Shown here piece after piece: positions 28,782 through 57,053 of a stretch of 64,000 nt of DNA. The position numbers and the translations under genes were made by a program. Position 1 is the stretch's first letter, and each line of letters begins with the position of its first letter. Under the pieces are notes generated by a model that made no database searches, was not told the DNA's origin, and saw only the letters and a list, made by a program, of their open reading frames with translations. This DNA is from Pseudooceanicola algae (GTDB lineage: Bacteria > Pseudomonadota > Alphaproteobacteria > Rhodobacterales > Rhodobacteraceae), in the NCBI RefSeq assembly GCF_003590145.2, contig NZ_CP060436.1, positions 3,426,501-3,490,500 of the forward strand. The letters run 5' to 3'.

Positions 28782-29265
28782 GGCTCTGTCGCATAAACCC
28801 CATGAGGGATTCATCTCGTGACTCCAGCATGGTAGATGGGATGCATGAGCAGACCTACACCCCCAACCTACAAGACCAGAAACTGACGGGCCTATAACGA
28901 AGCGCTCAGGCGCCGTGGCTCGCTCACAATCCATTGCCCGGCAGTCGCCGCTTGCAGTTATGAGAGGGTGGTTTGATCCTGAGATGACTTGGGTGGCGGC
29001 GCCAACGGGTCGGCGTGGCCACCAGCCGACCTACAGCGATGCCGCCATCCAGACATGCCTTGCCATGAAAGTGCTGTTCGGCATGGCGTTGAGGCAGGCG
29101 ACGGGGGGCGTCGAAAGCCCGCTGCGCCTGGTTGGCCTGTACTGGGCGGCGCCCGACCTCGGCACACTATCACGCTGTCAGAAAACGCTGGCCGTGAACG
29201 TCCCCTATCGGGGCTTCAATGGCCCGCTGCACCTTCTTCTGATCGATAGTACTGGTAGGCTTTGA
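28782..29265 (+). pseudogene. IS5-family insertion sequence, broken copy 1
   Basis: The left end GGCTCTGTCGCATAAA begins at 28782. The transposase ATG is at 28845 (MSRPTPPTYKTRN). Codon 14, which is Trp in related copies, is TGA. A 37-bp insert (28932-28968) splits RGSLTI from WFDPEMTW. The frame then continues through FGMALRQATGGVESPLRLVG and LAVNVPYRGFNGP to LLIDSTG, where the IS110 element starts. The catalytic DDE C-terminal part is missing, so it is dead. Confidence 0.85.
28932..28968 (+). repeat. Palindromic insert A (37 bp) in IS5 transposase
   Basis: Begins CATTGCCCGGCAG and ends GAGAGGG. It lies between the codons for Ile and Trp of RGSLTI|WFDPEM. Insert B at 30924-30960 has the same length, the same site and the same end sequences. 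Confidence 0.65.
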
Positions 29266-29336
29266 TGATGTAACCGCCCCCCGACGACATCTGTGTGCCA
29301 AGGTGTGTCTGCGAGGATCCACAAAGAGGAGCGGTC

Positions 29337-30365
29337 ATGTCGGAGATTATCACGGTCGGACTCGATCTGGCAAAGAATGTGTTTCAAGTCCATGGAGCGG
29401 ACGGCGCGGGTCGTGCAGTGCTGCGTAAGAAGCTGAGGCGAATGCAGGTGTTGGCGTTCTTCAGCCAGCTGCCGCCTTGCGTTGTCGCGATGGAAGCATG
29501 CGGCGGCGCTCACTTCTGGGCGCGCGAGATCGGCAAATTGGGGCATGACGTTCGGCTCATCCCACCGGCCTACGTCAAGCCCTACGTCAAACGCCAGAAG
29601 AATGATGCGGCAGATGCCGAAGCAATCTGTGAAGCGGCTGTGCGTCCGACAATGCGCTTCGTTCCGGTCAAGAGCGAAGAGGTTCAGGGTGCGGCGATGG
29701 TTTTCCGCGTGCGGGAATTGCTGATCCGGCAGCGGACACAGGCGATCAACGCTCTGCGCGGTCATCTGACAGAATTCGGCCAGATTGTGCCGCAAGGGGC
29801 GGCCAACGCCTCGAAGCTGATCGCCATCGTCGAGGACCCGGACAGCGGCATACACGCCGATGCCATTGCCACTTTGAAGGTGCTGGTTCTGGCACTCGCT
29901 CACCTCGAGGCGGAGATCGGGAAACTGAACGCAGAGATTGCCCGCCGGGCCAAAGAGAATGACGTGGCCCGACGACTGATGACGATCCCAGGCATTGGGC
30001 CCCTGATTGCCACGGCCATCGCAGTGCTGGCGCCACCGCCTGAGACCTTCCGCAAAGCACGAGACTTTGCGGCGTGGCTTGGTCTGGTGCCGCGACAGCA
30101 TTCGACCGGGGGCAAGCAGCGGCTCGGGGCCACGACCAGGATGGGTGAGCGATCCCTGAGACGGTTGCTCATCATCGGGGCCAACAGCGTCATCATCAAG
30201 CGGCATGTCCATGCTACGGCCAAGCCCGGCACTTGGCTGGGCGGGATGCTGACGCGCAAGCCACCGATGCTGGTGCGGGTGGCGCTCGCAAATAAAATGG
30301 CGCGGATCGTCTGGGCCCTAATGGCCCGAGGTGGCGTCTACAAAGCTCCGGCCGCGGCGGCGTAA
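29337..30365 (+). CDS. IS110-family DEDD transposase
   Basis: A 342-residue recombinase. The RuvC-like DEDD residues are visible in VGLDLAKNVFQVHG (D), VAMEACGGAHFW (E) and KNDAADAEAI (D, D). The C-terminal Tnp20 domain has RRLMTIPGIGPLIATAIAVL and the catalytic serine region RQHSTGGKQRLG. The ATG at 29337 follows AGAGGAGCGG. The gene is full length without stops, so the element may be active. Confidence 0.93.
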   Translation: MSEIITVGLDLAKNVFQVHGADGAGRAVLRKKLRRMQVLAFFSQLPPCVVAMEACGGAHFWAREIGKLGHDVRLIPPAYVKPYVKRQKNDAADAEAICEAAVRPTMRFVPVKSEEVQGAAMVFRVRELLIRQRTQAINALRGHLTEFGQIVPQGAANASKLIAIVEDPDSGIHADAIATLKVLVLALAHLEAEIGKLNAEIARRAKENDVARRLMTIPGIGPLIATAIAVLAPPPETFRKARDFAAWLGLVPRQHSTGGKQRLGATTRMGERSLRRLLIIGANSVIIKRHVHATAKPGTWLGGMLTRKPPMLVRVALANKMARIVWALMARGGVYKAPAAAA

Positions 30366-30603
30366 GCCCGCTGTAGGTCGCGAGGACGTCGGAGCGGAAG
30401 GAGCAGTTTGGCGCAATCGTCGTGAGACGGGATCGGGAGAACCAGTGTGCAACAGAGTGCCTTCGAGCACGCGGCTTTGATCTGGACCCGACCCTCGAAC
30501 ACCATACGGGCCCGCGGCATGTGTGACGCCGCATCGTGAGGCCGGATACATGTCAGCACCCGATGACGCGCTAAAATCAGCTCTGGAAATATCTCTTGCG
30601 CAA
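30366..30603 (+). ncRNA. Putative bridge RNA region of the IS110 element
   Basis: The ~238-bp non-coding 3' end lies between the transposase stop and the right subterminal repeat. In IS1111-type elements this end encodes a structured guide (bridge) RNA that pairs with donor and target DNA. The RNA boundaries and loops cannot be fixed by eye; the call is by position and family knowledge only. Confidence 0.4.
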
Positions 30604-30786
30604 GGGGCGGTTATACATGTTGCACAAAGCACTTGCTGACCGGAGTGCCCCTTTTCCCCGGACGCAGTTATCCGATAGTTTTCGCGACGGGCAGTCCGGA
30701 ACGGGACAGGCCAGTTCCGCGAGTCGCAGCAGACTGGCGACCATCCCGGCGGTCTGTCTGCGCGGCAGCTTGAACAGCACTTTGAT

Positions 30787-30827
30787 CCCCTCTCGGGACA
30801 TTGCTTCGCAATGCCCTGCCGGGCCGT
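30787..30827 (-). repeat. Palindromic insert C (41 bp) in IS5 transposase copy 2
   Basis: On the minus strand it starts ACGGCCCGGCAGGGCATTGC and ends GAGAGGGG. GGGCATTGC/GCAATGTCCC forms a hairpin with a GAA loop and a one-base bulge. The ends match inserts A, B and D. Confidence 0.6.
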
Positions 30828-30923
30828 GGACAGGCAGAATTGGATAGCCGTATTCGAGAACACCGGCGGGCGCCCAGGGCGGCCCTCATCCGGCGCGTGC
30901 AAGGCCATCTCCTTGTCCAGCCA

Positions 30924-30960
30924 CCCTGTCACACATGCAAGCATGTGCTGCCGGGCAATG
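30924..30960 (-). repeat. Palindromic insert B (37 bp) in IS5 transposase copy 2
   Basis: On the minus strand it begins CATTGCCCGGCAG and ends ACAGGG. The core CACATGC-TT-GCATGTG is a perfect palindrome. It lies after the Ile codon of RGSLLI, the same codon boundary as insert A in a different IS copy. Confidence 0.65.
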
Positions 30961-31115
30961 GATCAGCAAAGACCCGCGTTTGCGGAGCGCAGCGTTATAG
31001 GCGGACCAATTCGTCGTGCGGTAGCGGGCGGGTTTGGGCTTGCTCATGTCATTCGTCCAACCGCATGGATCCGTGATGTGAATCCTCCGCCGCGAGAGTT
31101 CTGCAACAATGCCCA

Positions 31116-32315
31116 TCACGACTGAAATAGCAACAGGATGAAGGCCATGAACAGGAGCAGGTGGACCGCGCCTTGCATTAGGTTTGTCCGCTTGCTTGAG
31201 AAGGTGATGATGCTGGTGGCCAGCATCGTGACCAGAAGCAGCATCTGTGTCGGTGGAAGGCCGAGGTTCAGTTCCAGACCGAGGATGCTTGCAACGACAA
31301 GCATGACGGGCACGGTCAGACCTATGGTGGCCAGGACAGACCCGAGGAAGATGTTGATGGAGCGCTGGAGGCGGTTGGAGAGCGCCGATTTGACGCCGCC
31401 AACCGCTTCAGGCGTGGCGACCAGGACGGCCATGAGCACGCCGCCCAATGCCTGTGGCGCATGCAGGGTCTCGATCACGTAATCGATCGGGTGCGCCAAC
31501 TGCTCCACTAGGTAGACCACCGGGACAATGTAAACGAGCAGCAAAAGTATGTGGCGAATCATGGACGGTTGGTCGTGCGATGTACCATGCTCACCGCTTT
31601 CCCCATTGTCTTCCGGCGTCGAAAAGTACGCCCGGTGGCGGCCGGTCTGGAGCGCAAGAAACACCACGAAGAGGCCCGCCGACATCGCGCCAACCATCAC
31701 CTTCTGCATGGTCGAAAGGGTCGGCCCGGCGGTCGTGTTGGTGACGTCCGGCAGGATCAGCGTGAAGACCGCTAGCGGGACGATGACGCCAAGGTAGGCA
31801 TTCGCGCCCTGCAGGTTGTACTCCTGCTCCTTGTACCGGAGCGCGCCGACCAAAAGCGCGGTGCCAATCATCCCACCGAGTACGATCATGACGACGGAGA
31901 AGAGCGTGTCACGAACGAGATCGGGATTGCTTTCACCGTGCATCATCACGGCGGTGATGCTGCAGACCTCGATCCCAGTGATCGAAAGCGTCAGGACAAG
32001 GGTGCCGAACGGCTCGCCTAGGCGCTCTGCTATGGCCTCTGCATGACGCACGACCCCCATTGCCGTGCCCATGACCACGAAGAAGAGCCCGGAGAGAAGC
32101 CCGACGAGGCCGAGGGGCACATGTACCAGCGGCAAGATGGCCTCGCCGAAGAAGACGAAGACCAGAACGGTCGCAAGGGTGACGGCCAGAAACCACTCCT
32201 GTGCCCAGGGACTGCGCCGGACTTTCTTCAAGGAGCTGGATGAGGGCGGCGTCTGCGTGGCTGACAAGGGGGTCTCCTCAGGGGCTGCGATAGGCTCAGC
32301 TTGGCGCGGCCTCAC
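31116..32315 (-). CDS. chaA: Calcium/proton (sodium/proton) antiporter, ChaA-like
   Basis: A CaCA-family antiporter with about 11 helices. Family repeats include GEPFGTLVLTLSITGIEV and ATPEAVGGVKSALSNRLQRSIN (alpha-repeats with the acidic ion-binding residues), separated by an acidic His-containing loop (STPEDNGESGEHG). It would expel Ca2+ or Na+ in exchange for protons. The GTG at 32315 overlaps the end of the MscS gene by 20 bases; a TTG at 32267 has a much better ribosome-binding site (GAGGAG) and gives 383 residues, so the start is uncertain. Confidence 0.88.
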   Translation of the reverse strand: MRPRQAEPIAAPEETPLSATQTPPSSSSLKKVRRSPWAQEWFLAVTLATVLVFVFFGEAILPLVHVPLGLVGLLSGLFFVVMGTAMGVVRHAEAIAERLGEPFGTLVLTLSITGIEVCSITAVMMHGESNPDLVRDTLFSVVMIVLGGMIGTALLVGALRYKEQEYNLQGANAYLGVIVPLAVFTLILPDVTNTTAGPTLSTMQKVMVGAMSAGLFVVFLALQTGRHRAYFSTPEDNGESGEHGTSHDQPSMIRHILLLLVYIVPVVYLVEQLAHPIDYVIETLHAPQALGGVLMAVLVATPEAVGGVKSALSNRLQRSINIFLGSVLATIGLTVPVMLVVASILGLELNLGLPPTQMLLLVTMLATSIITFSSKRTNLMQGAVHLLLFMAFILLLFQS

Positions 32316-34050
32316 GGTCGTTCCGCAGGACGTTGCGCGTCTTTAGCATGTCAATCAGCGCGAGCAGAAGCTTTTGCCGCATGTCGAGGAAATCCGTCCA
32401 GTCCGCAATTAGGGACTGCGCCTGTATTTCCAGTTTCAGGGCATCCTCGGGCATTTCGCGCACCAGCACGCGAACGCTGTCCTGCTGAATGCGATGATCC
32501 TCGCGGAGTTTCGCGGCCACCTCGTTGATCGTTTTGATCACCTGCGATCCATCGGCATCAGGCCACACGTCGAATTCGAATTGAAGCTGGTTGCCGTCGC
32601 GCCTTGAGAAGTTGGTGATCGACATCTCGGCAAAATCGGAATTCTGCACGGTGATCAGGGTCCGGTCGACCGCCCGGATCTTTGTCGAGCGCAAACCGAT
32701 CGCTTCCACGGTGCCCTGGACCCCGCCAAACTTGCACATTTCACCGACTGCGACGGGTCGGTCCGCATAGAGGATCAATCCGCCGATGAAGTTCTCGAGG
32801 GTGGGGCGGACGGCGAGTGCCAGTGCCAGGCCACCAACCCCCAGGCTGGCGACCACCCCGTAGAGAGGCATACCCAGCCGCGTGGCGACCGTGGCCAGAA
32901 TGAAGGCGGCCAAGATGATCCCCACCACACGTATCGCCAGCCTCAGCAGGCTAGCGTCCAGACCTTCGCGCCGGTCGCCGGGCAAGGTATGCACCATCCG
33001 CGCCAAGCCGTAAAAGACGAGCACGACCAGAGCGGCCAGCGTCGCCCCCTGCAGGACGAGCACCGTCACCTCGATCGCGGCCTGCAGCTCGCCGGTCGTA
33101 TTGATGATCTCGTCATTCAGCCAGCCATAGATCCCCAGAAGAAGCGCCACGACCAGAAGCACGATAGCGCGGGGCACATGCGAGCCCTGTGTCGAACGCC
33201 CGAAGACCCGCACGAGGAGGGTCGCGCTTGTCCCGAGAAGGAGAACTGTAAGGACGCCAAAGGCCATCCACTGCCAGGCTGCCTGTCCCCCGTAATCCCG
33301 CAGGAACGCGGGCGGCAGGCGTGTCAGATAGCTGTAGAGTTCGATGGGGGCCGAAAGCCCCGGGCCGAGGGTGAATGTCCTGTAAAAGTCGATCTCGCTG
33401 CCGGTCTTCTGAGGCAGGTCACGCACACGAGCATAGAACTCCGGCAAACGCTCGACGGTGTCCGACGAAAACTTGTAGCGTAGGGTTCCGTTTGCATCCG
33501 GCAAGCCGACCATGCGGATCTCGGTGCCCGGAAGGCTCCAACTCGGCTGGTCCTTGTTGGGCGCGACTTCGCCGCTCAGCGGCGCCTGAGAGATGTCGGG
33601 CACATCAATGCGCTCCAATATCTCTTTCAGAAGCAGAACGGCATTCAACCCCATAGACCGACGGCTTTCAGGCGCGACGGAGGACAGATCCAGAGTCTGA
33701 GTCGCCGCCACCAGTTCGCTCATGCCCTTGGCCTTGAGCGCCTTGACCTCTGCCGTGTCAAAAAAGGCGTTGTTGTTCGAGGCGACATCGATTGCCTCCA
33801 GAATAGTGTCGACCGCGTTTTGCGAAAGGGTCTGAAAACTGCCGAACGTGGCGCGTGGGCTGTTGAGCGGGAGCGGTGCCAAGGGCGAACTGGTCAGGGG
33901 GGACGGCATATCGGCTTCCGCTTCCATCTGTGCCGATTGAGCATTCGCGAAACCCGCGCCGCACATTCCCATCATTGTCACAAGAAGAAGCTGGCAGAAC
34001 CACTGGCTCAGAGATCGGGGGAAAAAACGGGTCCGCGATAATGCATTCAT
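32296..34050 (-). CDS. Large MscS-family mechanosensitive channel with periplasmic domain
   Basis: A 584-residue protein. A signal peptide ends GAGFANA; residues ~35-240 form a periplasmic domain, then several helices (WQWMAFGVLTVLLLGTSATL, AIVLLVVALLLGIYGWL, LVVLVFYGLARM) and the MscS pore/beta domain (YGVVASLGVGGLALALAVRPTLENFIGGLILYADRPVAVGE). GVQGTVEAIGLRSTKIR is the MscS beta-domain signature. The ATG at 34050 has AAAGAG upstream; the longer frame is extra. It forms an operon with the ChaA-like antiporter, suggesting a joint osmotic/ionic stress role. Confidence 0.9.
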   Translation of the reverse strand: MNALSRTRFFPRSLSQWFCQLLLVTMMGMCGAGFANAQSAQMEAEADMPSPLTSSPLAPLPLNSPRATFGSFQTLSQNAVDTILEAIDVASNNNAFFDTAEVKALKAKGMSELVAATQTLDLSSVAPESRRSMGLNAVLLLKEILERIDVPDISQAPLSGEVAPNKDQPSWSLPGTEIRMVGLPDANGTLRYKFSSDTVERLPEFYARVRDLPQKTGSEIDFYRTFTLGPGLSAPIELYSYLTRLPPAFLRDYGGQAAWQWMAFGVLTVLLLGTSATLLVRVFGRSTQGSHVPRAIVLLVVALLLGIYGWLNDEIINTTGELQAAIEVTVLVLQGATLAALVVLVFYGLARMVHTLPGDRREGLDASLLRLAIRVVGIILAAFILATVATRLGMPLYGVVASLGVGGLALALAVRPTLENFIGGLILYADRPVAVGEMCKFGGVQGTVEAIGLRSTKIRAVDRTLITVQNSDFAEMSITNFSRRDGNQLQFEFDVWPDADGSQVIKTINEVAAKLREDHRIQQDSVRVLVREMPEDALKLEIQAQSLIADWTDFLDMRQKLLLALIDMLKTRNVLRNDREAAPS

Positions 34051-34389
34051 TTTAAGCTCTTTCTGAATCAATCGCGCGCGATCGAGTTTAAAGTATCCGC
34101 GAGGAAGGTCCAAAGTGCAGTGCCTTTCAAGTATGAATACGCGCCGGTCGTTTCCGGGAAAATGGTGTGGAACCCTGAGTCGCTGACGGTCGCGATCAAA
34201 GGGCTTTGTATTTCTGACCTGCCACGGGATTTTTCCTTCACTGTCGATTGGAGTCCAGCCCAAACAGCTGTCCGGTGCCACTTACCTCGTTTGCCGAACC
34301 GGCCGGCAAGGGAAAGGGCGATGCCTTGTTCGAGCCGGCAGATGAGCGCCCACCTAGGTTTGCAGGACTCTGAATTCCGGACTGGACCA

Positions 34390-34590
34390 ATAGCCGAACG
34401 CTCAAGGGTGGCGGGGCCACCGATGATCTCTACGGGCTCCTCGCCACCGAGCCGAATGCGGAAATCGCCGAGATCCACTCCAAGGCCACGCCCGTGATCC
34501 TCACGGATCCGTCGGACCGGGAGACCTGGATGACAGCGGGCTGGGCAGTGGCGCAGGTGTTGCAGCGACGGCTGGCCGAAGGGAATTTTT
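34390..34590 (+). pseudogene. Fragment of an SOS response-associated (SRAP/YedK) peptidase
   Basis: The plus-strand frame reads YGLLATEPNAEIAEIHSKAT, then PVILTDPSDRETWMTAGW and ALQR-like AQVLQRRLAEG, matching the C-terminal third of SRAP proteins, which crosslink to abasic DNA. The catalytic N-terminal Cys region is absent. The His of AEIHSKATPV corresponds to the conserved active-site His. The remaining DNA of the 34051-34654 gap shows no gene. Confidence 0.65.
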
Positions 34591-34654
34591 ACGGGATCCT
34601 TGAGTTCGGCGGTGTCCATCACCGTCTGTATCCAGCTCGGCCGGCGGCGGTGTT

Positions 34655-35293
34655 TCAGGCGCTCCTTTTCCCGTTCCAGATGTGTCTGTCGGTGAGGCCT
34701 GCGATGCGTTCGATGAGGGTTGAGAGGGCCTGCCCTTCGGCGGCGATGCTCAGGGCCTGTATGCTGGCGGTGCACAGGGCCCAGTGGGCCTGGGGATCCG
34801 TGCGGATATCAAGCGCGCGCCAGCGCATCACGCGCCAGAAAGCCGCCGTTCCGGCGGCGCGGATGACCTGATCGGGGACGTCCTCGACGATCACCATGTG
34901 GACGCGGGTCATCAACCTGACGTAGTCGTCCGCCGTCCCGTCTTCAGCGCCGTTTACCATAGTCAGGATGCCGCTCAGCTCGATCCGGGTTCTGGCTTGC
35001 AGGGGGATGCCGTCGCAGTGCCGCGCCGCGATCAGCATGAGGTCCCGGTAGAGCGCCAGGCAGCTTTGACGCGAATCTACGGCAAGCTGGACGACGCCGG
35101 CCCCGACGCTGGGCTTCACTTCGACCAGCCCTTCGCGGACCAGCAGCTGGACGATCTGACGGACCGGAGTCCGCGACACTCCGAACTCCTGCGCCAACCT
35201 GTTTTCGGACAGCGCAAAGCTCTCCGTGGGCGGCGTCAGGCAGATCCGCATGCGCAGCGCATCCAGGATGGAGTGATGTGACTCTGTTTCCAT
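34655..35293 (-). CDS. GntR-family transcriptional regulator
   Basis: A 212-residue regulator with a winged helix at ~1-75 (SFALSENRLAQEFGVSRTPV is the HTH, EGLVEVKPSVGAGVV the wing) and a FCD-like helical C-terminus (ALYRDLMLIAARHCDGI, LMTRVHMVIVEDVPDQVI). It is a little short for FadR-type proteins (usually 220-250). The ATG at 35293 is used; the frame extends upstream into unrelated DNA. No intact target operon is next to it, only an epimerase fragment on the other strand. Confidence 0.85.
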   Translation of the reverse strand: METESHHSILDALRMRICLTPPTESFALSENRLAQEFGVSRTPVRQIVQLLVREGLVEVKPSVGAGVVQLAVDSRQSCLALYRDLMLIAARHCDGIPLQARTRIELSGILTMVNGAEDGTADDYVRLMTRVHMVIVEDVPDQVIRAAGTAAFWRVMRWRALDIRTDPQAHWALCTASIQALSIAAEGQALSTLIERIAGLTDRHIWNGKRSA

Positions 35294-35319
35294 GTCATGT
35301 GCCGATTTCCCACGTATTC

Positions 35320-35333
35320 GTATACCGGTATAC
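35320..35333. promoter_or_regulatory. 14-bp perfect palindrome, candidate GntR operator
   Basis: GTATACCGGTATAC lies 27 bases upstream of the GntR start and between it and the divergent epimerase fragment. The spacing and symmetry suit an autoregulatory operator of a GntR-type dimer. Confidence 0.5.
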
Positions 35334-35364
35334 TGGAACTCTTCCCCGGGCAAGGCCACTTCCC

Positions 35365-35600
35365 CCTGCTGGCCGACCTGCGTCCCGACGCCATCATCCA
35401 GTTCGCCGAACACCGCGCCGCGCCCTATTCCATGAAGGACGCCGCCGGCAAGATCTACACCGTCAACAACAACATCAACGCCACCCACAACCTGCTGGTC
35501 GCCACCACCGAGCTGGGCCTGGACGCGCATATCGTCCACCTCGGCACCATGGGCGTCTACGGCTATGACGGCGACGGCCTGAAGATCCCAGAACCCGATT
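35365..35600 (+). pseudogene. Internal fragment of an NAD-dependent epimerase (SQD1-like)
   Basis: The frame reads DLRPDAIIQFAEHRAAPYSM, then NNINATHNLLVATTELGLDA and IVHLGTMGVYGYDGDGLKIP. This matches residues after the Rossmann fold of UDP-sulfoquinovose synthase-like epimerases (N-N-x-x-x-T-x-N-L and the T/S-x-x-x-V-Y-G active-site region). The NAD-binding GGxGxxG start and the C-terminal half are missing. It stops at TAA 35600. Confidence 0.7.
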
Positions 35601-35656
35601 AATGCGTCCTGAGCCTAGCTGCTGCCATATGCCCGACTTCGTGCTCTTCGTGAATT

Positions 35657-36682: not shown

Positions 36683-36721
36683 TCAATGAAGCGTATCACG
36701 CAGGCATGTCTTTGTGAATAT

Positions 36722-36750
36722 TTGACAGATGACAGCGCTGTCAATAGCGT
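36722..36750 (+). promoter_or_regulatory. dctP promoter with LacI-type operator between -35 and -10
   Basis: TTGACA at 36722-36727 is followed 17 bases later by TAGCGT as a weak -10. The perfect 14-bp palindrome TGACAGCGCTGTCA (36730-36743), typical of LacI-family gluconate-type regulators, lies between them, so bound repressor would block RNA polymerase. Confidence 0.55.
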
Positions 36751-36800
36751 TCACCCATCGCCATCGTTCTACGGTTGCGACGTTTTAGGGAGGATAAAAC

Positions 36801-37823: not shown

Positions 37824-37838
37824 GCGGCCTTTTCATTC

Positions 37839-37865
37839 ACCCTTCCGGAGAGTCCGGAGGGGTGT
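37839..37865 (+). terminator. Hairpin between dctP and dctQ
   Basis: CACCCTTCCGGA/TCCGGAGGGGTG, a 12-bp stem with one G-T pair and a GAG loop, starts 15 bases after the dctP stop. It is followed by GTTCGCTC, not a T-run. Confidence 0.6.
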
Positions 37866-37883
37866 TCGCTCGGGGAGGGGCAA

Positions 37884-39784: not shown

Positions 39785-39794
39785 AAGACAGAAC

Positions 39795-41579: not shown

Positions 41580-41583
41580 CCCC

Positions 41584-44673: not shown

Positions 44674-44737
44674 TAGGTAAGCTTGGGTGCCGTATCGATA
44701 ATATCTGAGTAGGAACACTTGTGGAAAGGAAGCCATT

Positions 44738-45037: not shown

Positions 45038-45303
45038 GAGAAGAAACACCTGGGCCTTGCTGGATAGTATGAGCCATCGGGGTCATTGCGGCCTTCTGGT
45101 CAAGGCGGCGATCGTCATATGTGTCACCTACGACCAAGGCGAAGCCGCAGCGGCGGGGCTCGCAGTCTGCCTGTGCCTGGTCGCCTTCCGAAGGGGCCAG
45201 GCTCGCCAATCTCAGACGTGTCACCGCTCGTTTTCGTGCGATGAACTTCGCCGAAACGCGGAAAACGTTGGCTCCGGTGCCTGATCCGAGATTAAGGACA
45301 ATA
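45038..45303. other. Convergent gap after the secreted protein and M20 genes
   Basis: A 266-bp stretch between convergent genes. On the minus strand a frame reads DIVLNLGSGTGANVFRVSAK, which resembles the SAM-binding loop of a class I methyltransferase, but no start or further motif supports a gene. I treat it as a possible remnant. Confidence 0.25.
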
Positions 45304-50012: not shown

Positions 50013-50667
50013 TGGAATCCCTTTCTTGACTGTAGGCCGCCATCATCGTCGCGACGTCTTGTGTCGCATCGCGCCCAAGGCCGGAAAGACCGGCAATGAC
50101 GTTGCCGCGATCGGCTTGAGACTTGTTCTGGCTCATCTTGAAGATGGCTTCGTGCGAGGTGACGGTAAGCTGGTAGCCGACGACGCCGCGGATCAGGCTG
50201 TCGACCATTTTCTGGCGATCACCGTCCCGGTTCCAGGTCCCGCCGACGCCGGGCTCGTGGGCGCGCGCCGTGCGGTCGAACAGCGCGTGAAGGCGTTCGG
50301 GATCGGTGAAGGGCCGGACCTCGCAATGCAGGTGGACCGCCGCGTAGTTCCAGGTGGGGACGACGCCGGGCGTCTCATACCAGCTTGGCGTGATGTAGCT
50401 TGACGGCCCGAGGATCGCGACCGTCAGTTTTGGCAGCTGTTCAAGGCGGCGGCACATGGCATTGGCGCGGGCGAGATGCAGTTCCAGCGTCGCACCGTCG
50501 ACCTGCGTGGCGCTCGCTGCGTGCTCGGGGTCGCGCAGGAACACCGGAGCGTGGGTCAGCGAGACATCCGTTCCACCCGCATGGATAAGGGTGGCGAAAT
50601 CATACGCTTCGACGAGCCCGAGAATGCGATCGGGCCGCGTTTCGGAAAAGGGGGCGGGTGTGTACAT
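50005..50667 (-). CDS. paiB: PaiB-like FMN-binding protein
   Basis: A 220-residue protein of the FMN-binding negative regulator family (PaiB). It starts MYTPAPFSETRPDRILGLVE, with GPSSYITPSWYETPGVVPTWNY as the flavin-binding heart and KMSQNKSQADRGNVIAGL near the end, both diagnostic. PaiB of Bacillus is linked to polyamine and sporulation control, but most members are probably flavin enzymes. Its ATG follows the gntR stop directly (TGAATG). Confidence 0.92.
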   Translation of the reverse strand: MYTPAPFSETRPDRILGLVEAYDFATLIHAGGTDVSLTHAPVFLRDPEHAASATQVDGATLELHLARANAMCRRLEQLPKLTVAILGPSSYITPSWYETPGVVPTWNYAAVHLHCEVRPFTDPERLHALFDRTARAHEPGVGGTWNRDGDRQKMVDSLIRGVVGYQLTVTSHEAIFKMSQNKSQADRGNVIAGLSGLGRDATQDVATMMAAYSQERDSNA

Positions 50668-51480
50668 TCAGTTTCTCTCTGGCGCGGTCAGTGCAATGGC
50701 TTCGAGCGAAAGATCGCCATACATCAGCTTGAGATGACGATGTGCGATCTCCATGTGCTCGCGCATCAGGCGGGCTGCCGTTTCCGCATCCTCCCTGCGC
50801 AGGGCAGCGACGATATCGGCGTGATAGCGGCTGTTCTCGCGGGACCATTCACCGTGCAGTTCATGGGCAGCGCTTTCACGCGCCGTGGCATTGACGAGGA
50901 TCCCCACGATGACCTCGATCATCAGAAGCAACAGCCGGTTTGGAACGCAGCTGGCAATGATCGTGTGAAATTCGAACTCGGCTTCGCGCTGGCGGCGACG
51001 GCTGCGCTCGTCATGTGCGGGTATCGATGACAGCTCGATCTGGGCGTCGAGCCTATCAAAGGTCTCTTCGTCAATGTGCCCGACGACCGAGTACATCAGC
51101 TGAACCTCGATCGTGGAGCGCAGCTCGTAAATGTCGTCGATCGTCACTTTCTCGAAATAGCAGAAGTTCTGCACGGCCTGGATCGACTCGAGAACGCTGC
51201 TGCCGGTGACGATTGGACCGCCATTGGGCCCGGTCTTCATCCGCACCAGCCCCTGAACTTCCAGCTCTTTCAGGGCTTCGCGGATGGTGGCGCGACTGGC
51301 GCCGAAGGCGGTGATCATTTCCTTTTCGACGGGCAGGCTATCACCGGGTTCAAGCCCTTCGGTGATGATCCATGACCGGATTTCGCCCGCAATGACCGAC
51401 GACCGTTTGGGTGTCCGGGTAAGAAGGTGGCTCAATCGGCGTGAATTCTTGCGCCCCTCCCCGTCCTGCGTCGATGTCAT
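50668..51480 (-). CDS. GntR/FadR-family regulator of the Liv-amidase operon
   Basis: A 270-residue regulator. The HTH is SLPVEKEMITAFGASRATIR followed by EALKELEVQGLVRMKTGPNG; the FCD domain has YELRSTIEVQLMYSVVG, EFEFHTIIASCVPNR and HADIVAALRREDAETAARLM. It lies between livK and paiB within one run of genes and presumably responds to the substrate or a product. AGGAA precedes ATG 51480. Confidence 0.92.
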   Translation of the reverse strand: MTSTQDGEGRKNSRRLSHLLTRTPKRSSVIAGEIRSWIITEGLEPGDSLPVEKEMITAFGASRATIREALKELEVQGLVRMKTGPNGGPIVTGSSVLESIQAVQNFCYFEKVTIDDIYELRSTIEVQLMYSVVGHIDEETFDRLDAQIELSSIPAHDERSRRRQREAEFEFHTIIASCVPNRLLLLMIEVIVGILVNATARESAAHELHGEWSRENSRYHADIVAALRREDAETAARLMREHMEIAHRHLKLMYGDLSLEAIALTAPERN

Positions 51481-51510
51481 GAGATTCCTGTCCTTGATGG
51501 TTCGGATACA

Positions 51511-51535
51511 GCCGGGGGCCGGTCTGGCCCCCGGC
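51511..51535 (-). terminator. Perfect GC hairpin after livK
   Basis: GCCGGGGGCC/GGCCCCCGGC, a perfect 10-bp stem with a 5-base loop, starts 8 bases after the livK stop on the minus strand and precedes gntR. No T-run follows, so read-through into the catabolic genes is likely. Confidence 0.65.
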
Positions 51536-51542
51536 CCTGAGG

Positions 51543-52769
51543 TTATTTCGCGTCGGCGGTCGCGACGTTTTCGGGCCAGATGACCTGGTTCTGTCCGTCC
51601 TGCATCTGGGCGACAGGCACGGGAATCGCATCGGCGCCAGACCGCACCGTGTGATCTTCGCCGAACTGCATCCGTCCGATCAGGCACTCGTAATCCGTCT
51701 TGCCGATCTCTTCTGAAATGGCGGCCGCCTCGGTGGAGCCCGCCGCATCGACGGCCCGCAGGGCTACGAGCATGGTGCAATAGGCGTGCGCATGGCTGTA
51801 GTTGGCCGGGGTGTCGAATTCGGCCTCGATGCGGTCACTGAATTCCTGGTGGGCCGGCGTGATCTCGGGGCTGAACTGAAGGGCTGCCCAGATCAGACCG
51901 TCGGCGATTTCGGGGGCCACTTCCATGAACTCGGGTCGGGTCGGGTAGAAGATCGCAAGGTGCGAGGCTTCCAGCGCCTGCTCGTCCAACTGGCGCACGA
52001 AGGAGGTGCCCGAGTTGGCAAGGGTGAAGACCGAGATCAGGACATCGGGATCAAGGCCGCGCAGTTTCGAAAGCTGCGGGTAGAAGTCGGTCGTGCCGGT
52101 GGGCGTGGTTTCGGTGGCGATCACCTCCCAGCCATCTTCCTCGAACAGCTTTCCGATCTGTTCCGCATTGGCGAGGCCATAGTCGGTATCCTCGACCACG
52201 AAGGCGATCTGCTTGTTGCCTTCCTCGATCACGTCGTTTTCGAAGGCCCACTTGTAGAACCCGTGGACCGCCTGGCCGTAACCGTCGCTGTTGTAGTTGC
52301 CCTTCCAGTAATATTCATACCGCTCCGGGTCGGAGAGGACCTTGTCCGCGATGGCCGAGGACACCGGCTCGGCGCTCAGGATCGGCACACCGTATTGCGG
52401 AGCCATCTCCATCAGCGCCATGGTGACGTGGCTGTGCAGCGTGTCGCCGATGATCATGTCGACGGAATCCTGCGTCATCAGACGCTGGGCCGCACTGATG
52501 CCAACCTCGGGCTTGGAGTTGGAATCCTCGAAGACGAGGGTGGCGGTCGGCGGGGTGTCGGACACCGTTTCCACCATGCCGGCATTCCATTCCTTCACCG
52601 CAAGCTCCATGCCCTGACGATGGGCGGCACCGGTATTCGCGGCAGGGCCCGTCATCGGTCCGATGACGCCGATCGTGACCTCCTGGGCGGAGGCGAGGGA
52701 CGCCGCTCCGCTGGCAAGCGCGGCAGAGAGGATTCCTGCGGTCAGTATTTTCCTGGTCGTGGTGGTCAT
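51543..52769 (-). CDS. livK: Branched-chain amino acid type ABC binding protein
   Basis: A 408-residue periplasmic binding protein (Peripla_BP_6). The signal peptide ends AASLASA before QEVTIGVIGPMTGPAAN. IGDTLHSHVTMALMEMAPQYGVP and FVVEDTDYGLANAEQIGKLF are family segments. Members bind amino acids, amides, urea or aromatic acids; the amidase-rich operon suggests an amide-containing ligand. Unusually, it is the fifth and last transporter gene in the operon. Confidence 0.9.
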   Translation of the reverse strand: MTTTTRKILTAGILSAALASGAASLASAQEVTIGVIGPMTGPAANTGAAHRQGMELAVKEWNAGMVETVSDTPPTATLVFEDSNSKPEVGISAAQRLMTQDSVDMIIGDTLHSHVTMALMEMAPQYGVPILSAEPVSSAIADKVLSDPERYEYYWKGNYNSDGYGQAVHGFYKWAFENDVIEEGNKQIAFVVEDTDYGLANAEQIGKLFEEDGWEVIATETTPTGTTDFYPQLSKLRGLDPDVLISVFTLANSGTSFVRQLDEQALEASHLAIFYPTRPEFMEVAPEIADGLIWAALQFSPEITPAHQEFSDRIEAEFDTPANYSHAHAYCTMLVALRAVDAAGSTEAAAISEEIGKTDYECLIGRMQFGEDHTVRSGADAIPVPVAQMQDGQNQVIWPENVATADAK

Positions 52770-52838
52770 GTTCTATCTCCAGTTGGAAGGACTAGGTGAA
52801 TTGGCCAGGACGGCGGACTTCTTTTGAATTTGGTCCGT

Positions 52839-53822
52839 TCATGTCCGGGACGTGGTGCCACGTCGCTGTCTGAGCTTCAGGGCGGCCAGTCCCTGAGGCG
52901 CGACGAAGACGAAGAAGATGATGCCCGTACCGTAAAGAAGCATGCGGAAATCGCCGAATTCCCGCAGCATCTCGGACGCTACGGTAAGAAGAAGGGCCCC
53001 GTAGACCGGCCCGAAGAAGCGTCCGACGCCGCCGACGATGATCATCGCCAGAAGCGTGATCAGCATTTCGGGTCCGGCAACCGAGATTGGCGTCAGGATC
53101 ATGACGTAATGCGCATAGATCGCCCCGCTCAGGCCAACCACGCCCGCGCTCAGCGCGAAGGCGAAGATCTTCCACCGGGACAGATGCACGCCCAGGCTTT
53201 CCGCCGCAGCTTCGGCATCGCGAATGGCAAAGAAGGTCAGACCGGTCCGCGAGGTCAGCAGCGCCAGCAACGCAATATGAACCGTGACGAAGAAGACGGC
53301 CGCCAGCGCATAGGAACCGACCGCGTTGCCGACGCCGAACCGTAGCGTCATGTCACCGATGTGGATGGGGTCGAACGTCGGAATGCCCCAGAACCCCAGT
53401 TCGCCGCGCGTGATTTCCTTGAGATTCGAAAAGATCAGCCGCACGATTTCGGCAAAGGCGAGGGTGACGATCGCGACGTGGGGCATCGACCGAATCCGCA
53501 GGATCGGAAAGCCGATGATGACCCCCGCAATGGCAGCGGTCAGTGCCCCGACCCAGATCGTCAGCCAGGGGCTGATACCACCGTAATAGGCGACGATGGC
53601 CGAGATATAGGCGCCGATCGCAAAGAAGGCATGATGCCCCAGTGTCTTCAGGCCAAGCATTCCCAGCGTCAGGTTCCAGCCGCTGGCGAAGATCGCAAAG
53701 ATCAGAAAGATCGTAAGGATGTGAAGGATATAGTCATTCAGCGGCAGGAACGGCACGACAAGCAGACAGGCCGCGATCCCGAGCAGCACCAGATAGGGGC
53801 GGCGTCCAAATACTTCGAGCAT
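52839..53822 (-). CDS. livM: Branched-chain amino acid type ABC permease LivM
   Basis: A 327-residue permease with about nine helices, LGHHAFFAIGAYISAIVAYY near the start and RDAEAAAESLGVHLSRWKIFAFALSAGVVG as the ATPase-contact loop. It starts 3 bases after the livH stop. Confidence 0.92.
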   Translation of the reverse strand: MLEVFGRRPYLVLLGIAACLLVVPFLPLNDYILHILTIFLIFAIFASGWNLTLGMLGLKTLGHHAFFAIGAYISAIVAYYGGISPWLTIWVGALTAAIAGVIIGFPILRIRSMPHVAIVTLAFAEIVRLIFSNLKEITRGELGFWGIPTFDPIHIGDMTLRFGVGNAVGSYALAAVFFVTVHIALLALLTSRTGLTFFAIRDAEAAAESLGVHLSRWKIFAFALSAGVVGLSGAIYAHYVMILTPISVAGPEMLITLLAMIIVGGVGRFFGPVYGALLLTVASEMLREFGDFRMLLYGTGIIFFVFVAPQGLAALKLRQRRGTTSRT

Positions 53823-53825
53823 GGA

Positions 53826-54695
53826 TCAGCCCTCCCTTCCGGCAAAGAGACCGTTCGGCCGGAACCAGATGACAATGATAAGGAACGTGAAGGCGATGAC
53901 GTCCCGCCATTCGGTCGGCGCAAAGGCGACGCCCACGGATTCGATCATGCCCAGCAGGAAGCCCGCCGCGACAGCGCCGCCGAAGGATCCCAGCCCGCCA
54001 AGGATCACCACCGCGAACCCCTTCAGCAGATAGGCGACGCCCATCCACGGGTTCACGGTCACGAGCGGCGAAAGCAGGATCGCGCCGGCTCCGGCCAGGA
54101 CGGCGGAAATCGCGAAGACCGCAGTATGGACCAGCCCCGAAGGAATGCCCACCGCCAGCGCCGCCTCTGCATCCTGGGCCGTGGCCCGGACCATCCGGCC
54201 AAGGGGGGTGCGATACAGAACGAAGGCGCACAGGCTCATGATCAGCACAGCAAAAACAAGGATCGCGATCCGCTGCCATGGCATCCGAATGTCGCCGATG
54301 ACCGCGACACCGCTGAAAAAGTAGGGCAGGGTGCGGAACTGCTCACCCCAGACTAGCTGCGCGGCGCTTTGCAGTGCGATCGACAGGCCTATGGTGGCGG
54401 CGATGACCTGAAAGGCCCAGTCGTTGCGCGCCAGCAGCGGCGCAATCGTGGCCCGCTGGATCAGCGCCCCGGCCCCGCCGACAAGCACCAGAGTCAGGAA
54501 CGAGGCGAGGGCCACGTTTAGCTCGAGCGTCACGGCGAAGAACAGAACGAGGTAACCGGCGATCATCATCAATTCGCCATGGGCGAAGTTCAGAACGCGG
54601 GTCGTGCCGTAGACCAGCGCGATGCCGGATCCCACGAGGGCATAGATCGACCCCGTTATCAGTCCGTTCAGGATAATTTCGATCACGCTGCTCAT
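53826..54695 (-). CDS. livH: Branched-chain amino acid type ABC permease LivH
   Basis: A 289-residue permease. NGLITGSIYALVGSGIALVYG and TRVLNFAHGELMMIAGYLV at the N-terminus are the LivH signature, and RATAQDAEAALAVGIP is the coupling loop. It shares ATGA with the livF stop. Confidence 0.93.
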   Translation of the reverse strand: MSSVIEIILNGLITGSIYALVGSGIALVYGTTRVLNFAHGELMMIAGYLVLFFAVTLELNVALASFLTLVLVGGAGALIQRATIAPLLARNDWAFQVIAATIGLSIALQSAAQLVWGEQFRTLPYFFSGVAVIGDIRMPWQRIAILVFAVLIMSLCAFVLYRTPLGRMVRATAQDAEAALAVGIPSGLVHTAVFAISAVLAGAGAILLSPLVTVNPWMGVAYLLKGFAVVILGGLGSFGGAVAAGFLLGMIESVGVAFAPTEWRDVIAFTFLIIVIWFRPNGLFAGREG

Positions 54696-55408
54696 TTCGC
54701 TGCTGCTCCGACACCCAGGTAGACGCGTTTCACTTCGGGGTGATCCAGCATCTCTTCGCCCGATCCGCTCAGCACCACGCGGCCACTTTCCAGCAGGTAT
54801 CCCCTGTGGCTCAGCGCGAAGGAGAGCTTGGCGTTCTGTTCATTGAAGAGAATGGCGACCCCTCTTTCGTTGATTGATTTCATGATGCCCGACACGGTTT
54901 TAACCATGATCGGCGACAGGCCGAGGAACGGCTCGTCCATCAGCAGCACACGCGGATCGGCCATCAGGCCGCGGGCGATCGCCACCATCTGCTGCTGCCC
55001 GCCGCTCAGCTTTCCGGCGGTTGCGTTCAGGTGGGGTTTGAGATCCGGAAGCGTGTCCAGAACCTCGTCGAAGGCCCGGCGCGCGTCCTTTTGCGGCCGT
55101 GTAAAGGCGCCAAGAAGGATGTTCTCACGAACGCTCATCCGCGGGAAAAGCCGGCGGCGCTCCAGCACGATGCTCATGCCCTGACGCGGCCGCGTGGTCG
55201 CCGATTTGCCCTGCAGGTCGGTGCCGTTCAGGATGACCGCGCCCGATGATGCCTTCTTCAGCCCCATGGCCGCTTTCAGGACCGTGCTCTTGCCCGATCC
55301 GTTTGGCCCCATGACCGAAACGATCTCGCCGCGCCCGACAGACATCGACACGTCCCAAAGGACCTGCGTCGAGCCGTAATGCACATTGATACCCTTCAGC
55401 TCAAGCAT
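54692..55408 (-). CDS. livF: ABC ATP-binding protein LivF
   Basis: A 238-residue ATPase. Walker A GPNGSGKST, signature LSGGQQQMVAIARGL, Walker B VLLMDEPFLGLSP, and FNEQNAK at the H-loop position, where LivF proteins characteristically carry Gln instead of His. It overlaps livG by 8 bases. Confidence 0.94.
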   Translation of the reverse strand: MLELKGINVHYGSTQVLWDVSMSVGRGEIVSVMGPNGSGKSTVLKAAMGLKKASSGAVILNGTDLQGKSATTRPRQGMSIVLERRRLFPRMSVRENILLGAFTRPQKDARRAFDEVLDTLPDLKPHLNATAGKLSGGQQQMVAIARGLMADPRVLLMDEPFLGLSPIMVKTVSGIMKSINERGVAILFNEQNAKLSFALSHRGYLLESGRVVLSGSGEEMLDHPEVKRVYLGVGAAAK

Positions 55409-56129
55409 CGCTATCTCCCAGATAGATACTGCGGACGGCCGCGTGTTCGGCGACCTCCTGCATGGTGCCTGTCACGAGGACCTTTCCGCGATTGAGGAAG
55501 ATCGCCTCGTCGGCGAGGCCGAAGAGCACCTCCATGTTGTGCTCAACGACCAGGACAGTGATCCCACGCTCTTCGCGCAGCCGTCTGATCAGGTCGAGGA
55601 TCTGCGGAATGCTGGGCCGATCGACGCCGCCGGTGACCTCGTCGAGAAGAAGCAGACGGGGTTTTGTCGCCAGGGCGCGGGCCAGTTCCAGTCGCTTTCG
55701 CTGCCCGGTGCTGAGCGTGCGCGCGGGTTCGTCAAGCTTGGCGCTCAGGCCAACAAACTCGACGTACTCGGCAGCCTCGTCGCGGGCGGCAGCCATGCTT
55801 TGCCCGCGCGACACGATGGCGACCATCACGTTCTCGATCACCGTCAGCCCGCTGAAGGGCTGCGTGATCTGGAATGTCCGCGCGATTCCCTTCGCGCTTC
55901 GAAGGCTGGAGGTCGCCTTCGTCACGTCCGTATCACCCAGGCGGATAGATCCCTGCGACGGAGGCACCACCCCGGCCACCACATTGAAAAGGGTGGTCTT
56001 TCCGGCGCCGTTCGGGCCGAGGATGGCCATGGTTTGACCTTCCCTTACGGTAAGGTCGACACGGTCAAGCGCGACAACGCCGCCAAACTGGACGGTCGCT
56101 TGACTGACTTCCAACAAGTTTGCTGTCAT
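55401..56129 (-). CDS. livG: ABC ATP-binding protein LivG
   Basis: A 242-residue ATPase: Walker A GPNGAGKTT, signature LSTGQRKRLELARALA, Walker B LLLLDEVTGGVD and H-loop VVEHNMEVLF. ATG 56129 has GGAG upstream. It is the first gene of the long minus-strand operon ending with the M20 hydrolase at 45304. Confidence 0.94.
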   Translation of the reverse strand: MTANLLEVSQATVQFGGVVALDRVDLTVREGQTMAILGPNGAGKTTLFNVVAGVVPPSQGSIRLGDTDVTKATSSLRSAKGIARTFQITQPFSGLTVIENVMVAIVSRGQSMAAARDEAAEYVEFVGLSAKLDEPARTLSTGQRKRLELARALATKPRLLLLDEVTGGVDRPSIPQILDLIRRLREERGITVLVVEHNMEVLFGLADEAIFLNRGKVLVTGTMQEVAEHAAVRSIYLGDSDA

Positions 56130-56540
56130 TGGCACTCCAGACTTTGCTTGCGGCCAAGCCTGCATGGTCGGGGTCCAGTGACGCAACAATTAATGATAAT
56201 AAATATAAGAAATGGTATTTTTTCGGGCAAACACGGCGGCAGTTGGTCATATTTTCTTCACGTTTTAGATGATCTGCCGCCCTTCCTGCCGGCCGCCGGA
56301 CTGTTTGAAGCTGGAGTCTTGAGACGTGTTTTGCCGGCTGCGAGGCCGGGGGCTGGCCTGCTAACCGTTGAGCGGTTTCTTCGGCATCAACGGGTAGGTT
56401 GAAGTCCCGCAATCATCGAAACGAGGGGCGGATTCTGTTGAAAAGCCCTATGCTTGATCTGGACTGTGGCGTCTGGTTCCCTTGATTTTTGGGGATCTGA
56501 AGGGTTTGCGATGCTTGGAAATCAGAAGGTCCATGCCCGG

Positions 56541-57053
56541 CTATTCTGCGGATTTGATCCGGAGGACAACCTTGATGCCCGTGCTGTCGATTGGCAGGTG
56601 CAACGGCCCTTTGGAGCCACGATAAGGGATGTTGACGGCGAGGGTCTTCTGGCCCCTCTCGGCAGATTGCTTTGCAATCGCCTGCCGGGCAATGGGACGG
56701 CTCAGCGTGCTGAAGTCGGGCACCGACCAGTCAAGGCCGACCAGGCGCAACAAGCTTTCGACGAACCCGGTCGTCTGCCGCAGCGCCATGCCGAACAACA
56801 CCTTCATTGTCAGGCAAGTCTGAATGGCAGAATTGCTGTAAGTCTGCTGGCGACCACGCTTGCCTGTCGGCGCGGCCTCCCAGATCATCTCGGGATCGAA
56901 CCAGATAGTCAGCGAGCCCCGGCGCCTGAGCGCTTCACTGTAGGCTGGCCAGTTTTTTGTCTTGTAGGTCGGGGATGTAGGTCTGCTCATGCATACCAGC
57001 TACCATGCTGAATTCACGAGATGAATCCCTCACAGGATTCGTGCAACAGAGCC
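56541..57053 (-). pseudogene. IS5-family insertion sequence, truncated copy 3
   Basis: The end GGCTCTGTTGCAC begins at 57053; the transposase starts at 56990 (MSRPTSPTYKTKNWPAYSEA) and is open to 56541. RGSLTIWFDPEMIW is intact here, so this copy lacks the insert found in copies 1 and 2. A 45-bp in-frame insert (56652-56696) adds PIARQAIAKQSAERG between TLSR and QKTLAVN. After IDSTGIKV the sequence diverges, so the DDE catalytic end is missing. Confidence 0.85.
56652..56696 (-). repeat. Palindromic insert D (45 bp, in frame) in IS5 transposase copy 3
   Basis: On the minus strand it begins CCCATTGCCCGGCAGGCG and ends GAGAGGGGC. GATTGC-AAA-GCAATC forms a 6-bp hairpin, extended after a bulge by GGCA/TGCC. 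It adds exactly 15 codons and keeps the frame open. Confidence 0.65.

What the first reader, a model, noticed from the sequence alone, without database searches (positions are those of the whole stretch)
28932..56696. A family of 37-45 bp palindromic inserts that invade IS5-type transposase genes
Seen directly: four short inserts share the ends CATTGCCCGGCAG (or a close variant) and GAGAGGG, with a variable palindromic core. A (28932-28968, 37 bp) and B (30924-30960, 37 bp) lie at the same codon boundary (RGSLxI|W) of two different IS5 transposases. C (30787-30827, 41 bp) lies between AIQFCLS and IKVLF of the same gene as B. D (56652-56696, 45 bp) is in frame and adds 15 codons. Copy 3 lacks the A/B insert, so the uninterrupted reading is known. 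Established parallel: Rickettsia palindromic elements also insert in genes, but they are longer and unrelated in sequence. Inference: a non-autonomous mobile palindrome with site preference inside IS5 transposases, perhaps a REP/MITE-like parasite of transposons. I found no copy outside transposase genes in this window.
Basis: partly seen in the sequence, partly recalled or inferred. Interest (0 to 1): 0.72.

Follow-up and report, generated by a model that had tools for sequence, protein, structure and literature searches.

The report
Hairpin inserts specialised to transposase genes
In marine Rhodobacterales bacteria, a family of 41-base DNA hairpins, joined by at least two unrelated families, keeps landing inside the transposase genes of jumping genes of many kinds, so tiny mobile palindromes appear to live on transposons.

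Summary
A-D are copies of one covarying hairpin family (F1: CAYTG-CCC-GGCA-[stem, bulged T, 3-base loop]-GAGA-GGG; 41 bp, with 37-39 bp variants). Insert-free IS5 homologs show net inserts of 42 (D) and 37+41 (B, C) bp. F1 occurs in 114 of 295 genomes sampled from the family and in 6 sampled genomes of other families of the class. It enters 3' of Y-C-R-T-C, in both orientations, without target duplication. It is not an IS5 peculiarity: 161 of 193 distinct copies have flanks matching transposases of IS5, IS3, IS66, IS21, IS110, IS256, Tn3 and related types. In one IS3 subfamily 15 of 24 copies carry 1-6 hairpins, recurring independently at the same sites; copies with four or six inserts have still multiplied. 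Two sequence-unrelated hairpin families (F2, 115/295 genomes; F3, 44/295) share the niche. Best reading: REP-like non-autonomous palindromes, probably moving through single-stranded DNA, that accumulate in transposase genes and usually break them. The enzyme is unknown (no Y1 transposase in this genome or in most carriers), and why transposases are hit is open. My literature searches found no description.

The parts
28932..28968 (+). F1 element A, 37-bp variant, between ATC and TGG of an IS5-type transposase gene (gene sense)
30924..30960 (-). F1 element B, 37-bp variant, same codon boundary as A in a second IS5-type gene (gene sense)
30788..30828 (-). F1 element C, 41 bp, in the same gene as B
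56654..56695 (-). F1 element D: 41-bp element plus one extra C; net insertion 42 bp, in frame, in a third IS5-type gene
28845..29250 (+). IS5-type transposase gene fragment hosting A (approximate ends, by eye)
   Evidence: (PF13737, E 1e-27)
30690..31048 (-). IS5-type transposase gene fragment hosting B and C (approximate ends, by eye)
56541..56990 (-). IS5-type transposase open frame of 149 aa hosting D
   Evidence: (PF13737, E 4.7e-39)
29295..30365 (+). IS110-type transposase open frame of 356 aa, between the hosts of A and of B/C; no F1 in it
   Evidence: local IS110 profile

Best explanation
F1 is a non-autonomous, REP-like mobile hairpin. Shown: it is a folded unit, mostly of 41 bp (stem kept by compensatory changes, bulged T, conserved CCC-GGCA and GAGA-GGG feet), that has entered many times, in either orientation, 3' of Y-C-R-T-C without duplicating target bases, and most copies found are in transposase genes of many kinds. 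Shown: at 41 (or 37) bp it shifts the reading frame; in one IS3 subfamily the carriers are more decayed than insert-free copies; yet carrier copies with four or six hairpins have multiplied. Inferred: insertion goes through single-stranded DNA by an HUH-type or similar enzyme supplied in trans, normally inactivating the transposase and leaving an IS that can still be moved by a helper. Not explained: what steers or confines it to transposase genes.
For: Covariation: 95.9% of cells paired, 123 cells changed on both sides vs 29.3 (sd 4.1) in shuffles, 0 of 500 (the alignment was fitted to the model, so it leans that way). Target motif and bulged T (96% T at position 31) in 191 non-redundant copies. 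Net insertion most often 41 bp for the 104 of 231 copies with an insert-free homolog among the held loci, and clean site by site against insert-free IS3 copies. Context: 161 of 193 labelled transposase (Pfam). Recurrent hits at the same sites, with different cores or families on unrelated branches. Carrier decay: a stop codon in 7 of 15 carriers vs 0 of 9 insert-free copies (p 0.022; three carriers are from one genome); N/S changes 283/495 on nine carrier branches vs 153/435 on eight insert-free branches (p 5e-5; branches picked by hand, sums made by hand). Carrier mobility: six copies, 98.6-99.2% identical over about 1385 bp, at six places, 3 of 6 with a 3-bp target duplication by eye.
Against: No enzyme identified: PF01797 (Y1) has 0 matches in this genome and matches in only 30 of 295 family genomes; comparing the two lists, 94 of the 114 F1 genomes have none. 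A single-stranded route is inferred only from the one-sided target, absence of duplication and the hairpin. Two carriers with four and six inserts have no other stop or indel, which fits tolerance better than death. Intergenic insertion should be common for a REP but seems rare here.
Confidence: 0.55

Rival explanations
1. Survivorship: F1 inserts anywhere next to YCRTC, but copies elsewhere are purged and only those in dispensable transposase genes last.
For: YCRTC is everywhere (931 sites in the window, both strands). A few copies do lie outside: one prophage-like site seen in L030, L062 and L178, and apparently intergenic copies in L082, L087, L123 (by eye).
Against: Intergenic DNA and dispensable genes far outweigh IS DNA in such genomes (general knowledge, not measured here), yet hold few copies. 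Up to six hairpins in one IS copy is not expected from genome-wide random insertion.
Confidence: 0.2
2. Tolerated insert: the hairpin is skipped by the ribosome or removed from the mRNA, so the transposase still works and IS act as long-term carriers.
For: IS3 carriers with four (L305) and six (L316) inserts have no stop and no other indel in about 1.1 kb of coding sequence, and their branch N/S (0.32, 0.67) stays well below what an unconstrained gene would give (the neutral value is general knowledge). Two different interrupted IS3 in one genome have multiplied, for one of them with no insert-free full copy found. In 85 same-site pairs at 75-90% flank identity the cores are more alike than in random pairs (0.82 vs 0.70), while substitutions on both sides stay codon-periodic.
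Against: Carriers are more decayed and less constrained than insert-free copies; in the IS3 tree most inserts sit on terminal branches, several next to insert-free sisters, so much of the purifying selection predates insertion; pairs with unlike cores have the same low dN/dS (0.13 vs 0.15); the same-site pairs are not independent. Both orientations and all three codon phases occur, and the triplet before the insert does not match its last triplet (sites printed, by inspection), unlike take-off/landing codons of known bypassing (recalled).
Confidence: 0.15
3. Host defence: a system that recognises IS or transposase genes drives hairpins into them to silence them.
For: Three sequence-unrelated hairpin families share the niche; multiple hits per IS copy; mostly frameshifting lengths.
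Against: No candidate machinery was found, nor searched for beyond PF01797; the commonest F1 form reads without stops in several frames (by eye), poor design for killing; hits continue in already interrupted copies; carrier IS still multiply.
Confidence: 0.1
4. Footprint: the hairpin is what remains after excision or internal deletion of a larger transposon with these ends that prefers to land in other IS.
For: Clean insertion at a short motif and preference for IS would follow from a nesting transposon.
Against: The stem changes on both arms together while the feet stay fixed, and several stem types coexist within one genome, which fits a hairpin acting as a unit. No longer element with these ends caught my eye, but I did not search for one.
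Confidence: 0.07

Closest known systems
CGTC-tagged REPs (Di Nocera et al. 2013, PMC3733652; seen: abstract, sections 6 and 15, passages)
   Same: Small hairpins, mostly alphaproteobacterial, no dedicated transposase known, CRTC beside the hairpin, some copies inside genes
   Different: Those are mostly intergenic, with stem 8-9 bp, loop 4-5 and a CCA-like tail; here CRTC belongs to the empty target, the loop is 3, the tail is GAGAGGG, and copies sit in transposase genes. The paper reports that only 'a few fortuitous associations' of CGTC elements with other transposase genes were detected.
GTAG REPs/REPINs with RAYT (search listing with starts of abstracts; passages of PMC3733652)
   Same: Non-autonomous hairpins proposed to be moved by tyrosine (HUH) transposases
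   Different: No GTAG tag; no Y1 gene in this genome; not extragenic
IS200/IS605-type ends and derived palindromes (recalled; start of the abstract of PMC6006769 seen)
   Same: One-sided short target, no target duplication, hairpin with a bulged T (the bulge is recalled)
   Different: Single 41-bp hairpin, no transposase of that type in most carriers
Rickettsia palindromic elements (as summarised in passages of PMC3733652)
   Same: Palindromes inside genes
   Different: Those are found in frame in host genes; F1 mostly shifts the frame and is concentrated in transposases
byp translational bypassing elements and T4 gene 60 (recalled; search listing only)
   Same: Short hairpin inserts, several per gene
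   Different: No matched take-off/landing triplets; both orientations

Membership tests
CGTC-tagged REP | unpaired CGTC/TGTC/CCTC tag that is part of the repeat | tested here: not met
   C-R-T-C precedes the element but the same or similar bases stand at insert-free copies of the site; G at its second place in only 31%
CGTC-tagged REP | stem 8-9 bp, loop 4-5, CCA-like tail | tested here: not met
   9-bp stem but 3-base loop and GAGAGGG tail in the 41-bp class
CGTC-tagged REP | mainly intergenic | tested here: not met
   161 of 193 have flanks matching transposases
GTAG REP / RAYT system | GTAG tag and a RAYT (Y1) gene in the genome | tested here: not met
   no GTAG in the consensus; PF01797: 0 in G000, 30 of 295 genomes
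IS200/IS605-derived palindrome | insertion 3' of a short motif, no target duplication | tested here: met
IS200/IS605-derived palindrome | Y1 transposase partner with matching ends | tested here: not met
   94 of 114 F1 genomes have no PF01797 match (lists compared); ends of the Y1 genes found were not compared
Classical MITE | terminal inverted repeats with target duplication | tested here: not met
   clean insertion, no duplication at the IS3 sites printed
Translational bypassing element (byp) | identical take-off and landing triplets | tested here: not met
   triplet before insert vs last triplet of insert at the sites printed, by inspection
Translational bypassing element (byp) | sequence skipped during translation | not testable with these tools
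   needs protein data
Known structured RNA | match to an Rfam family | tested here: not met
   only a tRNA in the window at gathering score

The most novel reading that the evidence does not exclude
Transposase genes are a specific ecological niche for several unrelated hairpin families: an unknown single-strand insertion process recognises mobile DNA as such (IS of many families) and loads it with hairpins, either as hyperparasites of transposons or as a bacterial anti-transposon system.
Probability: 0.3. Interest if true: 0.9.

Novelty: new variant of a known kind. Interest (0 to 1): 0.72.

Why it matters
REP-like palindromes are known mainly from between genes. Families whose copies are mostly inside transposase genes, of many IS kinds and across many Rhodobacterales genera, pose a clear question: what steers small hairpins to mobile DNA? 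If targeting is real, it would be a new layer of transposon parasitism or control. Practically, it may explain a class of broken or odd transposase annotations and gives natural markers of insertion order within IS copies. Records of cultured strains such as Dinoroseobacter shibae, Ruegeria pomeroyi and Phaeobacter hold F1, so it can be tested.

Tried and rejected
Rejected: IS5-specific preference. Rejected as a general partner: a resident Y1/RAYT gene. Y1 genomes do carry F1 more often (20 of 30, against 94 of the other 265; lists), which may only reflect IS load. Weakened: my own idea, raised, that low dN/dS between same-site pairs proves function after insertion. The script chose strand and frame by the lowest ratio, which biases dN/dS downwards; pairs with unlike cores gave the same low value; and the IS3 tree with insert-free sisters and the branch counts showed that much of the constraint predates insertion. 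Some inheritance of inserts over 10-25% divergence still looks likely, but pairs are not independent. Rejected: host-lineage similarity as the cause of same-site similarity (142 within-genome different-site pairs, mean core identity 0.664, against 0.696 between genomes). Inconclusive: reading-frame read-through counts (55 of 230 F1, 7 of 42 F2, 6 of 48 F3 with a transposase profile on both sides in one frame), because antisense and partial profile matches are mixed in; phase counts, where only 67 of 138 fit a clean 41-bp insert and other inserts lie within the 300-base flanks. The fixed-spacing pattern was mis-spaced, and its three matches are not elements. The IS5 subfamily alignment (14 copies) was too patchy for a branch test. 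No phage record matches the one F1 form tried. Literature: searches returned no paper; others (4 papers; 5) returned listings in which I saw nothing on hairpins in transposase genes of this group, and I opened none of those; only open-licence PMC text was searched.
Full report
WHAT IS IN THE WINDOW. A and B are 37 bp, C is 41 bp, and D is a 41-bp element plus one base. Insert-free homologs on plasmids give the net sizes: 488 vs 446 bases for D (42 bp; Thioclava, Paracoccus and others, part of them annotated IS5 or ISPko1), 398 vs 320 for B plus C (78 = 37+41; Sulfitobacter), and 467 vs 427 for A (40, i.e. 37 plus 3 bases of other gaps). The hosts of A and D match Pfam DDE_Tnp_1_5.

ONE HAIRPIN FAMILY (here called F1). 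Nine copies align with no internal gap except in the short A and B. A covariance model, R1, from seven of them (A and B left out) found nine places at E <= 0.01 in the whole genome and, run without filters on the window, also A and B (21.1 and 20.1 bits), which the genome search had missed: 11 copies. Nine are in IS5 genes by open frames and homology, four of them in a single IS5 copy at 835.8-836.6 kb; two (C1:1954667 and C1:1315592) I could not assign. On 64 distinct rows the stem pairs in 95.9% of cells, with 123 cells changed on both sides against 29.3 expected from shuffling, and no slid register comes near (the alignment was fitted to the model). Over 12 pairs in 230 copies, 47 positions are G-T and 25 are A-C, a slight lean to the element strand. 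In 191 non-redundant copies the feet CCC-GGCA and GAGA-GGG and a bulged T at position 31 (96%) are near-invariant, while the stem varies.

HOW WIDESPREAD. 114 of 295 sampled genomes of the same family have F1 at E <= 0.001. In 385 genomes drawn from the class, 11 have it at E <= 1e-4: five of the own family and six of other families. Four viral contigs and 92 plasmid records (one F1 form) hold it; no phage record matched that form.

WHERE IT SITS. From 153 loci (L028-L180) I took 193 copies, distinct in their flanking bases. Flanks of up to 600 bases on each side were translated apart from the element and clustered. I scanned 20 of 30 cluster representatives with Pfam: 16 matched transposase, IS-associated or integrase-core families (two of them below the curated cut-off) and four did not. 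Carrying 16 labels over by sequence similarity, one or two steps and either strand, assigned 161 of 193 copies: IS5 66, IS3 46 (+8 OrfA), IS481-like or other rve 13, IS66 9, IS21 11, IS110 4, IS256 2, Tn3 2. Of the 32 left, local profiles put nine inside a transposase frame (some weakly) and three within 138 bases. Of the other 20, about a dozen look like IS630, IS91, IS6, IS66, ISNCY or IS1182 parts by eye only; exceptions by eye are one prophage-like site seen three times (L030, L062, L178) and apparently intergenic copies in L082, L087 and L123. In the plasmid collection 45 of the 50 listed F1 places (of 92 records) have no listed gene, two lie under 'IS3 family transposase', one under 'hypothetical protein', and two records have no annotation. 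That collection omits pseudogenes, so this neither supports nor contradicts. Of four annotated regions opened, one has the match inside an IS3 transposase gene, and the other three show no transposase gene at the match; the copies on the Dinoroseobacter shibae plasmid lie in IS5 sequence by my own labels (L054), while the Ruegeria pomeroyi copy lies between genes for a hypothetical and a DUF1153 protein and its context is not established.

HOW IT ENTERS. For 104 of 231 copies an insert-free homolog was among the held loci; the net length is most often 41, with 40-43 in most of the rest and smaller values from broken gapped alignments. The five bases before the element are Y-C-R-T-C (0.2-1.2 bits each), the base after it is G in 70%, and little else is conserved. 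Printed next to insert-free IS3 copies, the target is not duplicated. Both orientations relative to the gene occur, in all codon phases. A one-sided short motif, no duplication and a hairpin with a bulged T are what single-strand (HUH-type) insertion would leave; that is inference, and the comparison with IS608-type hairpins is recalled. The Y1 transposase family is absent from this genome and present in 30 of 295; 20 of these 30 carry F1, but 94 of 114 F1 genomes have none (lists compared).

REPEATED HITS IN ONE IS. 24 distinct near-full-length copies of one IS3 subfamily (core 1231 bp) comprise nine without any hairpin and 15 with one to six; three of the 15 are from one genome, G075. Sites 312, 353, 592 and 644 are occupied on unrelated branches by hairpins with different cores or from different families: independent re-use of the same targets. 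Two G075 copies have six (five F1, one F2), that in G013 four. In G013 this IS3 exists six times at 98.6-99.2% identity over about 1385 bp in six different places, three with a 3-bp target duplication by eye and three without: the interrupted IS moved, by itself or helped. Whether G013 also holds an insert-free copy of it was not settled (one search scored only two candidates there). A second G013 IS3 with an F1 in orfA and an F3 at the orfA/orfB junction has three near-full copies; a fourth, truncated copy ends at the F3, and the search found no insert-free full copy in that genome.

ALIVE OR DEAD AFTER INSERTION. Results go both ways. For tolerance: L305 (four inserts) and L316 (six) have no stop and no other indel; same-site pairs at 75-90% flank identity have unusually similar cores (0.82 vs 0.70 for random pairs; 46% vs 17.5% at 0.9 or more), so some inserts were probably inherited; codon constraint looks strong on both sides (dN/dS 0.15 in the high-core class at 75-93% identity, but also 0.13 in the low-core class; frames were chosen by the lowest ratio, which biases these values down). 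For death: 7 of 15 carriers but 0 of 9 insert-free copies have a stop codon (p 0.022), and carriers have more replacement changes on their branches (283/495 on nine branches vs 153/435 on eight, p 5e-5; branches picked and summed by hand, pre-insertion time included); no single triple is significant on its own (lowest p 0.09). One clearly inherited pair (L056/L144) evolves with little constraint. I conclude that insertion usually breaks the gene, without excluding tolerance in some lines.

UNRELATED FAMILIES IN THE SAME NICHE. The IS3 copies also hold two other hairpins: F2 (GAGGAGGATCA, then a stem with a GGGG, GGTG or AGTG loop, then CCCGACGAA; 43 bp net at three IS3 insertions) and F3 (TCCGCCATTGGTCCGAGGACAATGG core; 34-38 bp net). 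Searched on their own, F2 is in 115 of 295 genomes (model R2) and F3 in 44 of 295 (up to two mismatches, no match for the reversed control pattern). Of the 30 F3 loci fetched, 26 lie within 300 bases of a local transposase profile match, some weak. Of the 30 F2 loci fetched, 20 do; in seven of the other ten my motif did not locate the element and the middle of the locus was used; five of the ten (L366, L372, L374, L381, L387) read as IS66, IS481, IS5, IS630 and IS1182 parts by eye. Neither family has a match above noise in this window. I did not label the unmatched loci further.

COMPARISON AND LIMITS. The nearest printed kind I found is the CGTC-tagged REP of alphaproteobacteria (PMC3733652: abstract, sections 6 and 15 and passages seen), which is mainly intergenic and also lacks a known enzyme. 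F1 fails its defining tag, loop, tail and location. I file F1 as a new variant of REP-like palindromes.

Noticed in passing
L316/L256 core site 302, L047 site 644, L365-L394: F2: a second hairpin family (GGAAA-stem-GGGG/GGTG/AGTG-stem-TTTCC, flanks GAGGAGGATC and CCGACGAA) in transposase genes; 115 of 295 genomes.
   Followed up: partly
L307, L323, L258, L335-L364: F3: a third hairpin family (TCCGCCATTGGTCCGAGGACAATGG) in transposase genes; 44 of 295 genomes.
   Followed up: partly
L104, site 204 of the IS5 alignment: A further 36-bp insert with a GAACGCCTTGCGTTC hairpin, possibly a fourth family.
   Followed up: no
G013 loci L239-L241: IS3 with F1 in orfA and F3 at the orfA/orfB junction; in L240 F3 lies in one open frame with the rest of orfA and orfB; no insert-free full copy was found in that genome.
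   Followed up: partly
L030, L062, L178: What looks like the same inherited F1 copy in three prophage-like loci between a portal-like gene and small genes that look like a toxin-antitoxin pair (by eye): a rare copy outside IS.
   Followed up: no
L128, L132: F1-bearing contigs filed under Enemella evansiae (an actinobacterium, from general knowledge); probably contamination by a Rhodobacterales genome.
   Followed up: no
L023 (G000:C1:1314092-1317135): An F2-like hairpin and an F1 copy about 240 bases apart in unassigned DNA next to a transporter-like gene of the window's own genome; perhaps a decayed IS.
   Followed up: no
L257 and L258, core site 312: Two IS3 copies of one genome (G055), sisters of different insert-free copies, carry at the same site an F1 with the same unusual start TATTACCCGACAG; hints at transfer between IS copies.
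   Followed up: no
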